This document shows positions 59,388 to 62,809 of a DNA stretch of 64,000 nt, piece by piece. The stretch is taken from the NCBI RefSeq assembly GCF_007744515.1, contig NZ_CP036268.1:1445640-1509639 (forward strand). Direction: 5' to 3'. Both the position numbers and the translations under genes were made by a program. Below the pieces are notes generated by a model, which ran no database searches, was not told the DNA's origin, and saw only the letters and a list, made by a program, of their open reading frames with translations. Source of the stretch: Stratiformator vulcanicus. GTDB lineage: Bacteria; Planctomycetota; Planctomycetia; Planctomycetales; Planctomycetaceae. How positions within the stretch are numbered: position 1 is the first letter of the stretch; each line of letters opens with the position of its first letter.

Positions 59388-60401
59388 ATGAGCAATCTGC
59401 GAGCTATTGATCTCTTCTCCGGCTGCGGCGGGCTGACCGTCGGACTCGAAGACGCCGGATACCGGGTTGTCGGTGCAATCGAACGCGACGATGATGCCGC
59501 TACGGTGTACGCTTTGAACCACCCCGACGTACATTTGTGGCATTGCGACATTCGCGAAGTAAACGAGAAGGATGTCCGCGGTCAGCTATCTCTAAAGGTT
59601 GGCGAATTAGATCTTCTTGCGGCTTGTCCTCCGTGCCAAGGCTTTAGCACGATACGGACTCGCAACGGCCTTCGGCCGGCAAAAGATCCGAGAAATAGCC
59701 TCATCCGTGAAGTCGCTAGATTTGCTGAAAAATTGCGACCAAAATTTGTTCTGTTCGAAAACGTGCCCGCACTAGCCCGTAATCGCCGATTCTCAAATCT
59801 GGTTAAGAGGCTAAGCGATACTGGATACTCGACTTGTTGGAAAATCTGTGACGCCGCCGACTACGGCGTTCCTCAGCGAAGAAAACGACTGGTTTTGCTT
59901 GCAACTAGCCTCGGCAGTCCAGAATTCACGAATTCGCCAGATGCACGCGAGACAGTACGCGACGCAATTGCAGGCCTTCCGGTACCTGGTAATTCAGGAG
60001 ACGAACTTCATGATCTGCCCGAACGGCGCACCGACCGTATTCGGGAAATGATCCACTTGATACCTCACGACGGCGGGAGCAGGAGCGATTTACCTGAAAA
60101 ATACATGCTTCCCTGCCATCGTGCCTGCAATGGGTTCAAAGACGTATACGGCCGAATGCATTGGGATCGCGTCGCGCCCACTATCACGACAGGTTGCTTT
60201 AATCCTTCGAGGGGTCGATTCCTGCATCCCGAGCAAGATCGGTGCATTAGTTTACGCGAAGCTTCTCTGCTTCAGGATTTCCCGGGCGCCTATACGTTTC
60301 CGGCGGGCCTTGGCAAACAGCGTATTGCGACGTTGATCGGAAATGCCTTTCCACGTCGCATGGTGAGTCATCACGCGGCGTACCTATCTACCTTGCTATA
60401 A
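59388..60401 (+). CDS. DNA (cytosine-5) methyltransferase of a restriction-type cassette
   Basis: 337 residues from the ATG at 59388. All core C5-methyltransferase motifs are visible: I (AIDLFSGCGGLTVGLEDAG), IV with catalytic Cys83 (CPPCQGFSTIR), VI (FENVPAL, Glu124), VIII (QRRKRLVLLA) and X (RIATLIGNAFP). The recognition domain is only about 100 residues, so the target is probably short, and cannot be read from sequence. It is the first gene of a three-gene operon (4-base gap to the ATPase/nuclease gene) and would protect self DNA. Confidence 0.96.
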   Translation: MSNLRAIDLFSGCGGLTVGLEDAGYRVVGAIERDDDAATVYALNHPDVHLWHCDIREVNEKDVRGQLSLKVGELDLLAACPPCQGFSTIRTRNGLRPAKDPRNSLIREVARFAEKLRPKFVLFENVPALARNRRFSNLVKRLSDTGYSTCWKICDAADYGVPQRRKRLVLLATSLGSPEFTNSPDARETVRDAIAGLPVPGNSGDELHDLPERRTDRIREMIHLIPHDGGSRSDLPEKYMLPCHRACNGFKDVYGRMHWDRVAPTITTGCFNPSRGRFLHPEQDRCISLREASLLQDFPGAYTFPAGLGKQRIATLIGNAFPRRMVSHHAAYLSTLL

Positions 60402-60405
60402 TTCA

Positions 60406-62409
60406 ATGCCTAATAGCGACAAGCTTACTTTCAAGGTACTTGGGCGAACGCTAGAGCACTTCGGCGTTCAAATGTATACACAGCGGCCCCCGGCGCTTGC
60501 TGAGTTGGTTGCCAATGGTTGGGATGCTGGTGCCCATAATGTCGACCTTGTCTTGCCGCGGGAAGAGGACTATTCGCCAGATAGCTCTACAATTGAAATT
60601 TCCGATGATGGCACAGGAATGACTTTCGAGGAGGTTCGGGATGAGTACCTGGTTTTAGGACGAAACCCTCGTGAGCAGTATGGCAATGAAAAATATGGCC
60701 GGCGCATTATGGGGCGGAAAGGGATTGGTAAATTGGCGGGTTTTGGACTTGCGGCGGAAATCGAGGTGCTTACTTGGCGAGATGGGCATGCCACGCGATT
60801 CTGGTTGAAGCGGGATCAGCTTAGGCTGAAGAGTAACGAAGTGAAGGATATCGATATCGATTTCAAACGCGAAGATCCACCAGACGGTGGCACCTCGCAC
60901 GGCACTATCGTGTTGTTGTCAAAGCTCAAGCACAAGACGCCCATAAAAATCGAGGATCTGTGTACGTCGCTCGCACGTCGATTCAGCCGCACTGTTAGGG
61001 GGCGAATGGAAATTAGAGTTAACGGTGATACACTTCCCGATCCCACGCCAAAGCTGACATTTCGATTTCCTGAAGAAGGCTTTGCCGAGGTGAGTTTGCC
61101 GTCAGGAGAAGTAGTCCGGTACTGGTACGGTTTTTCGCCCGAAACCATAAAGCTGCGTGAATTGCAAGGCTTCATAATTCTCGTCAACGGGCGTTCCGCG
61201 CAGGCTCCGCCGTTCTTTTTCGGTGTGGAATCGACAGCCTCGGGGCAACATTCAACTAAATATGTTATTGGCGAAGTCGAGGCAGACTTTGTAGATGCGG
61301 CTGCAGATGACGACTCTGATGTTATCTCGACCGATCGCCAGAATATCGATTGGGAGGAGGAAAATGTACTCCAGCTGAAGCTGTGGGGTGAGTCACTTTC
61401 GAGGAAGGTTCTAGCGGAATGTGCTCGGACAAAGGGCGAAGAGTTTGAGAATTGGGCATTAAATGACCCGGATTATTCGGAGCGACTCAACCGTCTCGAC
61501 CGCGCGTCCAAGAAACAGGTGAAATCGTTTTTGAGGACGCTTGGCAGTGCGGAAGTTGAATCCCATCGGTCGCGTGATCTCGCGAGTTCATTGCTTCGAG
61601 CGTATGAATATCGGCATTTCCATGATGTGGTACAAGACATTGTCGATGTAGGACATGACCCAGAAGCACTTCAGAGACTCTTGGTTAAGCTTACGGACTG
61701 GAAGGTTCTGGAAAGTAGGGCCGTATTGGAGGTAATCAACGGGCGACTTCAGATCATTGATAAGTTCGAATCTATGCTCGCTAACGACGCGCCCGAACGC
61801 GCCGGGCGTGTCGGAGTAGATAATATGCATGACTTGTTGGCACGTCACCCGTGGATATTGAATCCGGAGTGGCAAATCCTTTCGGAAGAAAAAAGAATTA
61901 CAACTCTGATGCGGGTGTGGTTTGCTGCTGAGGAAACGGATGATGATGACTCGCGTAGAATCGATTTTCTTGGACTGTCGGCGGATCGACGAACTGTAAT
62001 TATTGAGATTAAACGACCTGATCATGCTGCTACACAAAAAGAAGTCTCTAGGCTTGTAGAGTATAAAGATAAGCTATCGCAGTCGGTTCCTGATGAGCAG
62101 ATACAAATGGTGCTTGTATGTGGGCGAAATCCGAAGATTACCCCGAGTGAGCTTAAGTTGTGGGAGCGGGAAGAGAATAGAGAAATCCGATTTTGGAATT
62201 CGATATGTGAGAAGACGAAACGGACATATTCGCACTATCGGGCGCTATTGGAGTCGGATATCGATCATCCTGATTTCGCGAGCGCAACTCGCGAAGTCAT
62301 GAAGACTCGAGAGGTAATTGAAAGAGGGACAGTCCATCGCGGTCCCGAAGAGGATGATCGTCGTCTCGGTCGTCAAGATATCGAATATCGGGAGGGCGAA
62401 GATGGATAA
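60406..62409 (+). CDS. GHKL ATPase fused to a PD-(D/E)XK-like nuclease domain
   Basis: 667 residues. The GHKL (Hsp90/MutL/MORC) ATPase at 1-290 shows ELVANGWDAGA (Glu33, Asn37, Asp40), ISDDGTGM (65-72) and GRKGIGKLAGFGLA (103-116). A helical middle (330-460) leads to a C-terminal domain: HDLLARHPWILNPEW, then RRIDFLGLSADRRTVIIEIKRPD in two chunks, with Asp520, Glu534 and Lys536 placed like a PD-(D/E)XK nuclease of the NucS or DUF4263/Shedu kind. MutL/MORC-like GHKL proteins in restriction operons were described by Iyer, Abhiman and Aravind. The cutting enzyme of the cassette is therefore probably this protein. It is AT-richer than its neighbours (24 of 60 GC at 61981-62040). Confidence 0.85.
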   Translation: MPNSDKLTFKVLGRTLEHFGVQMYTQRPPALAELVANGWDAGAHNVDLVLPREEDYSPDSSTIEISDDGTGMTFEEVRDEYLVLGRNPREQYGNEKYGRRIMGRKGIGKLAGFGLAAEIEVLTWRDGHATRFWLKRDQLRLKSNEVKDIDIDFKREDPPDGGTSHGTIVLLSKLKHKTPIKIEDLCTSLARRFSRTVRGRMEIRVNGDTLPDPTPKLTFRFPEEGFAEVSLPSGEVVRYWYGFSPETIKLRELQGFIILVNGRSAQAPPFFFGVESTASGQHSTKYVIGEVEADFVDAAADDDSDVISTDRQNIDWEEENVLQLKLWGESLSRKVLAECARTKGEEFENWALNDPDYSERLNRLDRASKKQVKSFLRTLGSAEVESHRSRDLASSLLRAYEYRHFHDVVQDIVDVGHDPEALQRLLVKLTDWKVLESRAVLEVINGRLQIIDKFESMLANDAPERAGRVGVDNMHDLLARHPWILNPEWQILSEEKRITTLMRVWFAAEETDDDDSRRIDFLGLSADRRTVIIEIKRPDHAATQKEVSRLVEYKDKLSQSVPDEQIQMVLVCGRNPKITPSELKLWEREENREIRFWNSICEKTKRTYSHYRALLESDIDHPDFASATREVMKTREVIERGTVHRGPEEDDRRLGRQDIEYREGEDG

Positions 62410-62809
62410 CCTCAGCTCAAATCAACGGCGGAGGTGCATGAGCCAAAATCGTGGCAAAAACACATCGATCGAACTGGCTGTTCGCAGTCATCTGCACAGA
62501 CGTGGTATGCGTTTTCGGAAGAATGTTAAGGCATTGCCCGGTTGCCCTGACATTGTATTCTCAAGAGCGAAGCTTGCCATATTCCTCGATGGCGACTTTT
62601 GGCACGGGTATCGTTTTCCATCGTGGCACCACAAATTGTCGAAACCGTGGCGAGAGAAGATCGAGGAAACACGGAAGCGCGATCGTCGGATTCATCGACG
62701 GCTGAGACGTCATGGATGGTGCGTTGCTCGTTTTTGGGAGCATGAAATTCGGTCAGATTTGACCGCTGTCGTTGACGAAATATCTAGGCTCTTGAAAAGC
62801 TCACAGTAG
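62402..62809 (+). CDS. vsr: Vsr-like very-short-patch endonuclease
   Basis: 135 residues from the ATG at 62402, overlapping the previous gene by 8 bases. MSQNRGKNTSIELAVRSHLHRRG is the family's start (in two parts), then RKNVKALPGCPDIVF with the metal-binding Asp50, and FLDGDFWHGYRFP. E. coli Vsr has GCFWHHHHC here with a structural zinc; the Cys is Asp in this protein, so zinc is probably not bound in the same way. Vsr nicks at T-G mismatches made by deamination of 5-methylcytosine, which suits its place next to a C5-methyltransferase. It ends 1 base before the stop of xylA on the other strand. Confidence 0.92.
   Translation: MDNLSSNQRRRCMSQNRGKNTSIELAVRSHLHRRGMRFRKNVKALPGCPDIVFSRAKLAIFLDGDFWHGYRFPSWHHKLSKPWREKIEETRKRDRRIHRRLRRHGWCVARFWEHEIRSDLTAVVDEISRLLKSSQ

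What the first reader, a model, noticed from the sequence alone, without database searches (positions are those of the whole stretch)
59388..62809. Three-gene restriction-type cassette: C5 methyltransferase, GHKL-nuclease, Vsr
Seen: three genes with 4-base gap and 8-base overlap, so one operon; the second encodes a GHKL ATPase with a C-terminal nuclease-like motif, the third a Vsr-like endonuclease. Known: MutL/MORC-type ATPases have been noted in restriction-modification operons. No ordinary restriction enzyme gene is present, so the fused ATPase/nuclease probably does the cutting, or Vsr acts with it. Inference: a compact, complete defence unit whose mode of target recognition is not obvious.
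Basis: partly seen in the sequence, partly recalled or inferred. Interest (0 to 1): 0.72.

Follow-up and report, generated by a model that had tools for sequence, protein, structure and literature searches.

The report
ATPase-nuclease restriction cassette with repair enzyme
A planctomycete-type bacterium carries a three-gene DNA self/non-self system whose cutter is a MORC-like ATPase fused to a nuclease, a kind already predicted in print and found in many microbes, so it is an ordinary member of a poorly understood family.

Summary
Three genes lie head to tail: a C5 methyltransferase (59388-60401), a GHKL ATPase-nuclease (60406-62409) and a Vsr-type endonuclease (62402-62809). The middle protein models as a MORC-like GHKL+S5 ATPase followed by a PD-(D/E)XK nuclease of the EndoMS/Shedu type, with E464, D520 and E534-x-K536. 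This matches paraMORC3, described in 2008 as part of restriction-modification operons with cytosine methylases and Vsr. NCBI's BbrUII/HgiDII restriction-enzyme model matches it strongly but below the curated cut-off. The trio recurs: of 80 genome loci with a relative, 69 have a C5 methyltransferase, 38 a Vsr and 36 both. Vsr is optional and unrelated to the state of the nuclease motif, so the ATPase-nuclease most likely cuts and Vsr repairs deaminated 5-methylcytosine. The same genome holds a second methyltransferase, restriction enzyme, Vsr operon with an EcoRII-type middle gene. Less ordinary: close relatives of the ATPase-nuclease swap methyltransferases, once for an adenine methyltransferase, and 20 of 70 relatives have Met for the catalytic Lys. 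Target site and ATP dependence are unknown. Verdict: new member of a known kind.

The parts
59388..60401 (+). C5 cytosine DNA methyltransferase (337 aa); target-recognition region about residues 173-265
   Evidence: Pfam DNA_methylase 1.6e-54; TIGR00675 dcm above cut-off; target-recognition region conserved at 40-55% in 17 relatives
60406..62409 (+). GHKL ATPase + S5 + helical linker + PD-(D/E)XK nuclease (667 aa), predicted restriction enzyme, paraMORC3 type
60433..61434 (+). MORC-like GHKL+S5 ATPase module, residues 10-343
   Evidence: model pLDDT 86.2; MORC3 5ix2_B Z 25.0, rmsd 3.4, 297 aligned
61795..62205 (+). PD-(D/E)XK nuclease domain, about residues 464-600 (E464, D520, E534-x-K536)
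   Evidence: alignment counts; domain model pLDDT 91.1; EndoMS Z 11.7, NucS 11.3, Shedu 11.2
62402..62809 (+). Vsr-type T:G mismatch endonuclease (135 aa), DGDFWHG variant without the cysteine of the usual HGCFWH motif
   Evidence: Pfam Vsr and TIGR00632; alignment to E. coli Vsr 1cw0

Best explanation
A horizontally acquired Type II-like restriction-modification cassette. The C5 methyltransferase marks host DNA at one short site (inferred). The middle protein is the restriction enzyme: its MORC-like GHKL+S5 module binds ATP and dimerises (inferred from fold and intact motifs), and its C-terminal EndoMS/Shedu-type PD-(D/E)XK domain cuts unmethylated DNA (inferred). The Vsr protein is an accessory that nicks T:G mismatches left when 5-methylcytosine at those sites deaminates (inferred from family). 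Shown: gene order, domains, conserved active-site residues, recurrence of the trio. Not shown: cutting, ATP use, the site.
For: Gene order M-R-V with a 4-base gap and an 8-base overlap. GHKL residues E33, N37, D67, G69, G71, K105 invariant in 70 of 70; E464 67/70, D520 67/70, E534 69/70. N-terminal fold: MORC3, Z 25.0. C-terminal fold: EndoMS Z 11.7, NucS Z 11.3, Shedu Z 11.2; profile to NucS E 4.3e-05. NF050001 BbrUII/HgiDII restriction enzyme matches 70 of 70 aligned proteins. 69 of 80 genome loci and 76 of 80 viral-contig loci have a C5 MTase. GHKL and MTase distances correlate, r 0.34, 0 of 2000 permutations as high. A second M-R-V operon in the same genome has an EcoRII-C nuclease as its middle gene. 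Cassette GC 0.50-0.535 against 0.581 for the window, third-position GC about 0.50 against 0.59-0.79 in three neighbours: foreign origin.
Against: No activity is shown anywhere here. P0002 scores 247.8 bits against the NF050001 cut-off of 550. 11 of 80 genome loci have no C5 MTase in the DNA held (some contigs are cut) and one close relative has a D12 adenine MTase instead. K536 is M in 20 of 70, so cutting by the same chemistry is not certain for the whole family. I identified no separate target-recognition domain in the middle protein.
Confidence: 0.75

Rival explanations
1. A dedicated mismatch-repair or VSP unit: the GHKL protein acts as a private MutL for Vsr, and its EndoMS-like nuclease works on T:G mismatches at methylated sites rather than on foreign DNA.
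For: The nuclease domain is near EndoMS/NucS, a mismatch endonuclease. MutL plus ATP raises gonococcal Vsr activity (PMC6116569 passages). GHKL and Vsr genes overlap here.
Against: No Vsr in 42 of 80 genome loci and 67 of 80 viral-contig loci; the three closest relatives (L205, L206, L003/L129) have no Vsr in the DNA held; the EndoMS likeness is shared with Shedu at a tied Z.
Confidence: 0.1
2. Vsr is the cutter or an essential second subunit of the cutter, with the GHKL protein as a regulator or loader.
For: Vsr is a true nuclease family and its gene overlaps the GHKL gene here. In Caulobacter a Vsr-like protein causes a DNA damage response when the cytosine methyltransferase is lost (PMC12907096 abstract).
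Against: Vsr presence is not linked to K536 being kept or lost: 23 with and 23 without against 12 and 12, Fisher p 1.0; with 3 kb on both sides 18 and 19 against 5 and 11, p 0.37. Vsr is optional. GHKL-Vsr distance correlation is weaker, r 0.14, 10 of 2000 permutations as high.
Confidence: 0.07
3. A decayed or silent remnant: an acquired cassette whose restriction activity is lost.
For: Low GC and foreign composition; no site-avoidance signal for GTCGAC (observed/expected 0.93), though the true site is unknown. A decayed version of the same arrangement occurs in a Neisseria gonorrhoeae record.
Against: All three frames are open and all catalytic residues examined in the middle gene are intact.
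Confidence: 0.08

Closest known systems
paraMORC3 GHKL proteins of restriction-modification operons (Iyer, Abhiman and Aravind 2008, PMC2292703)
   Same: GHKL + S5 + C-terminal restriction-endonuclease-fold domain with E-D-ExK; operons with cytosine methylases and Vsr, as the authors state (parts 1 and 2 of 4 read; passages)
   Different: The paper stresses SFII helicases in such operons; none lies beside this cassette (neighbours: cytochrome c', PhyH, xylose-isomerase-like barrel). Met for Lys in part of the family and the D12 partner are not in the parts read.
BbrUII/HgiDII family restriction enzymes (NCBIfam NF050001)
   Same: Related by profile, E 2.3e-73; all 70 aligned proteins match; partner MTases M.HgiDII and M.BbrUII are 5mC enzymes, M.HgiDII at GTCGAC (PMC5867850 passages)
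   Different: 247.8 bits, below the cut-off of 550, in two stretches; target of this system unknown
EndoMS/NucS and Shedu (SduA) nuclease domains
   Same: Fold of the C-terminal domain, Z 11.7 and 11.2
   Different: Pfam scores below cut-off; neither is known to me as fused to a GHKL ATPase (recalled)
E. coli Vsr (V.EcoKDcm, 1cw0) and gonococcal Vsr enzymes
   Same: Vsr family, E 5.1e-13 to 1cw0
   Different: DGDFWHG in place of HGCFWH; the zinc ligands recalled for E. coli Vsr are not all kept

Membership tests
paraMORC3 (Iyer 2008) | N-terminal GHKL domain with intact ATP-binding motifs | tested here: met
   E33, N37, D67, G69, G71, K105, G106, G108, K109 in 70 of 70
paraMORC3 (Iyer 2008) | S5 domain after GHKL | tested here: met
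   Model matches MORC3 ATPase over residues 10-343, Z 25.0
paraMORC3 (Iyer 2008) | C-terminal RE-fold nuclease with E-D-ExK | tested here: met
   E464, D520, E534-x-K536; EndoMS/Shedu fold
paraMORC3 (Iyer 2008) | Lacks the MORC motif GhXhhpXXRhl | tested here: met
   0 of 70 aligned proteins match the motif
paraMORC3 (Iyer 2008) | Direct homology to the paper's own paraMORC3 sequences | not tested
   Those sequences were not in hand
MORC family proper | GhXhhpXXRhl motif in the S5 domain | tested here: not met
   No match in P0002
BbrUII/HgiDII restriction enzyme (NF050001) | Score above the curated cut-off | tested here: not met
   247.8 bits against 550
BbrUII/HgiDII restriction enzyme (NF050001) | Cleaves the cognate unmethylated site | not testable with these tools
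   needs a cleavage assay
Type II restriction-modification | DNA methyltransferase gene next to a restriction nuclease gene | tested here: met
   nuclease by fold and motif only
Type II restriction-modification | Both enzymes act at the same sequence | not testable with these tools
   no methylome or digestion data
Vsr | Score above the TIGR00632 cut-off | tested here: met
   113.8 against 97.85
Vsr | T:G mismatch nicking | not testable with these tools
   needs a nicking assay
Shedu (SduA) | SduA_C above Pfam cut-off | tested here: not met
   19.2 against 27
MZA defence system | MzaB above its cut-off | tested here: not met
   21.6 against 850

The most novel reading that the evidence does not exclude
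The ATPase-nuclease does not read the site by itself but takes its specificity from whichever methyltransferase it is paired with, as an ATP-gated M-R complex. Its nearest kin (window, L003, L206, L205, L049) are partnered with a shared-TRD C5 enzyme, a divergent C5 enzyme and a D12 adenine enzyme, and no separate recognition domain was identified. That would make it a modular GHKL-powered restriction motor, mechanistically unlike classical Type II enzymes.
Probability: 0.15. Interest if true: 0.65.

Novelty: new member of a known kind. Interest (0 to 1): 0.33.

Why it matters
It adds a clean example, with no helicase gene beside it, of a MORC-like ATPase fused to a nuclease in a methylation-linked defence cassette. 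Eukaryotic MORC proteins act on silenced DNA by an unclear mechanism; a compact three-gene bacterial system with a measurable read-out (restriction) would let one test what the ATPase does. The partner swaps and the Lys-to-Met variants give concrete comparisons.

Tried and rejected
Target site by genome statistics: in 60 stretches of 20 kb of the own genome plus the window (1,264,000 bases, about a quarter of the genome) GTCGAC was 1189 against 1285 expected (0.93), within the general depletion of palindromes; nothing pointed to a site. The genome also has another restriction system, so avoidance could not be assigned.

Target site by comparison with M.HgiDII or M.BbrUII: their sequences were not in hand. 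The gonococcal methyltransferase pieces in L046 have a recognition region of another type, judged by eye from the alignments as nearer to L049's than to the window's, so no site was carried over.

Vsr as compensation for a lost nuclease lysine: tested and rejected.

Mosaic origin of the cassette (M and V from one lineage, R from another): best BLAST hits suggest it (M 53% and 52%, V 54% and 59% to L119 and L073, whose ATPase-nucleases are 26% and 29% identical). A tree places the window's ATPase-nuclease with L003, L206 and L049 at 100/100, away from L119 and L073, but the methyltransferase tree is unresolved around the window. So a swap within this cassette is not shown.

Promoter and terminator scans were not above chance. 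Empty-site comparison: homologues of the upstream cytochrome gene were found in 11 of 21 family genomes, the own genome included; their flanks were not examined, so no insertion site is claimed.

A wrong-strand ORF reading for minus-strand loci was corrected. The structural second-look lists are limited to Foldseek's own candidates; families not listed there are not excluded.

Full report
Where it lies. The window is bases 1,445,640-1,509,639 of a single-contig genome of 5,228,745 bases. The phylum is inferred to be Planctomycetota: a 'same phylum' genome (G090) has a contig of 78,124 bases that matches in length a contig titled Planctomycetota bacterium. The cassette sits between a cytochrome c'-like gene and a xylose-isomerase-like gene, both on the other strand; no helicase gene is beside it.

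Observation. The products match C5 DNA methylase, GHKL ATPase and Vsr. GC is 0.535, 0.499 and 0.500 for the three genes against 0.581 for the window, and third-position GC is about 0.50 against 0.59, 0.75 and 0.79 in three neighbouring genes, which indicates foreign origin.

The middle protein. An AlphaFold model from 70 aligned proteins has mean pLDDT 86.2. Residues 10-343 match MORC3 ATPase at Z 25.0, rmsd 3.4, 297 aligned; other MORC and then Hsp90 entries follow. The C-terminal domain modelled alone (69 sequences; L081 was left out) has pLDDT 91.1 and matches EndoMS (Z 11.7), NucS (11.3) and Shedu (11.2); these are tied. A profile of that domain finds NucS in the PDB at E 4.3e-05 and EndoMS at 0.0012. 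In the 70 proteins the ATP-binding residues E33, N37, D67, G69, G71 and K105 are invariant; E464 is kept in 67, D520 in 67, E534 in 69 and K536 in 46, with M in 20. These 70 are the window and 69 of the 80 loci; 11 loci were dropped (8 with GTG or TTG starts, L114 and L128 short, L104 without a usable start).

Distribution. In 294 genomes of the phylum, 31 (the own genome included) have a match at E 0.001 or better, many to the ATPase part alone. Of 31 plasmid records with a match, 15 were opened. Ten of those 15 have an annotated cytosine methyltransferase at the gene; three have an annotated Vsr close by (Deinococcus L039, Rhizobium L042 and L043), one has a Vsr some 4.5 kb away (L038), and two records carry no annotation there. 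Of 80 genome-contig loci, 69 hold a C5 methyltransferase, 38 a Vsr and 36 both; of the 57 with 3 kb on both sides, 50, 24 and 24. Of 80 viral-contig loci, 76, 13 and 13. One search kept the best 80 of 552 confirmed and the best 80 of 145, so these are shares among the best matches.

Who cuts. All 70 aligned proteins match the NCBI model for BbrUII/HgiDII restriction enzymes; the window protein scores 247.8 bits, below the cut-off of 550. Vsr presence is independent of the nuclease motif: 23 with and 23 without among K-type, 12 and 12 among the rest. Distances between ATPase-nucleases correlate with those of their methyltransferases (n 69, r 0.34, 0 of 2000 permutations as high) more than with those of Vsr (n 38, r 0.14, 10 of 2000). 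The same genome has, at about 4,636,335-4,638,876 of the contig, a methyltransferase, a nuclease with an EcoRII-C domain and a Vsr with the usual HGCFWH motif, in that order. I therefore read the window cassette as M-R-V with the ATPase-nuclease in the R slot. That reading is inference; no activity was measured.

Vsr. The window Vsr reads DGDFWHG where the E. coli enzyme reads HGCFWH. Zinc ligands of E. coli Vsr are recalled, not from a call; by that recollection they are not all kept. Among the 38 Vsr-bearing genome loci, by my reading of the table, 10 have a residue other than cysteine at that place. Published work shows Vsr stimulated by MutL and ATP (PMC6116569, passages) and a Vsr-like protein causing a damage response when its methyltransferase is missing (PMC12907096, abstract).

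Partners. The window methyltransferase and 17 relatives share a recognition region at 40-55% identity, close to the level of the catalytic part, so a shared site is plausible; the site is unknown. The four nearest ATPase-nucleases are L205 (48%), L206 (47%), L003 (45%) and L049 (40%). L206 and L003 have methyltransferases of the window's type (53% and 50%); L049 has a divergent C5 enzyme; L205 has no C5 enzyme in the DNA held but a D12 adenine methyltransferase starting 5 bases after the ATPase-nuclease stop (Pfam 7.2e-32). No Vsr was found in L205, L206 or the 19 kb around L003 (L129); L049 has one. In a tree of 20 rows, in which L205 was not included, the window, L003, L206 and L049 ATPase-nucleases group at 100/100; the methyltransferase tree is poorly resolved.

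Prior art. Iyer and colleagues (2008, PMC2292703; parts 1 and 2 of 4 read, passages) described MORC and paraMORC ATPases in restriction-modification operons with cytosine methylases and Vsr-superfamily nucleases, and paraMORC3 with a C-terminal RE-fold domain bearing E-D-ExK. PMC8011034 (passages) reports related GHKL genes with C5 methylases and Vsr. M.HgiDII is a 5mC enzyme at GTCGAC (PMC5867850, passages). Paper searches for paraMORC, HgiDII/BbrUII and combinations of GHKL, Vsr, MORC and EndoMS listed, among the titles and abstract beginnings seen, no biochemical study of a paraMORC3 ATPase-nuclease; the library lacks most subscription papers, and a recalled identifier for the original BbrUII paper was not held.

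Verdict. A real, intact and recurrent cassette of a kind already predicted. The open points worth testing are whether ATP drives cutting, how the site is read, and why part of the family has Met for Lys in the active site.

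Noticed in passing
L151:6335-8876 (own genome, contig about 4636335-4638876): A second operon of C5 methyltransferase, EcoRII-C nuclease and canonical Vsr in the same genome
   Followed up: partly
L205:4929-7852: Closest relative of the middle gene (48%) is followed 5 bases on by a D12 adenine methyltransferase instead of a C5 enzyme
   Followed up: partly
window 62011-62013 (K536) and the same column in alignment A2: The catalytic-type lysine is methionine in 20 of 70 aligned proteins, with E464, D520 and E534 mostly kept
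   Followed up: partly
L046 (Neisseria gonorrhoeae record): A decayed version: methyltransferase and ATPase genes are in pieces while the Vsr frame is open
   Followed up: no
L039 (Deinococcus plasmid p96k): ATPase-nuclease, C5 methyltransferase and Vsr lie next to DISARM genes
   Followed up: no
L034 (Pantoea plasmid pPagL15_1): Methyltransferase and ATPase-nuclease lie among prophage genes such as holin and lysis genes
   Followed up: no
window 60406-62409 against PHROGs: phrog_6203, labelled unknown function, matches the middle protein over residues 6-612 at 2.8e-89; it could be annotated as this family
   Followed up: no
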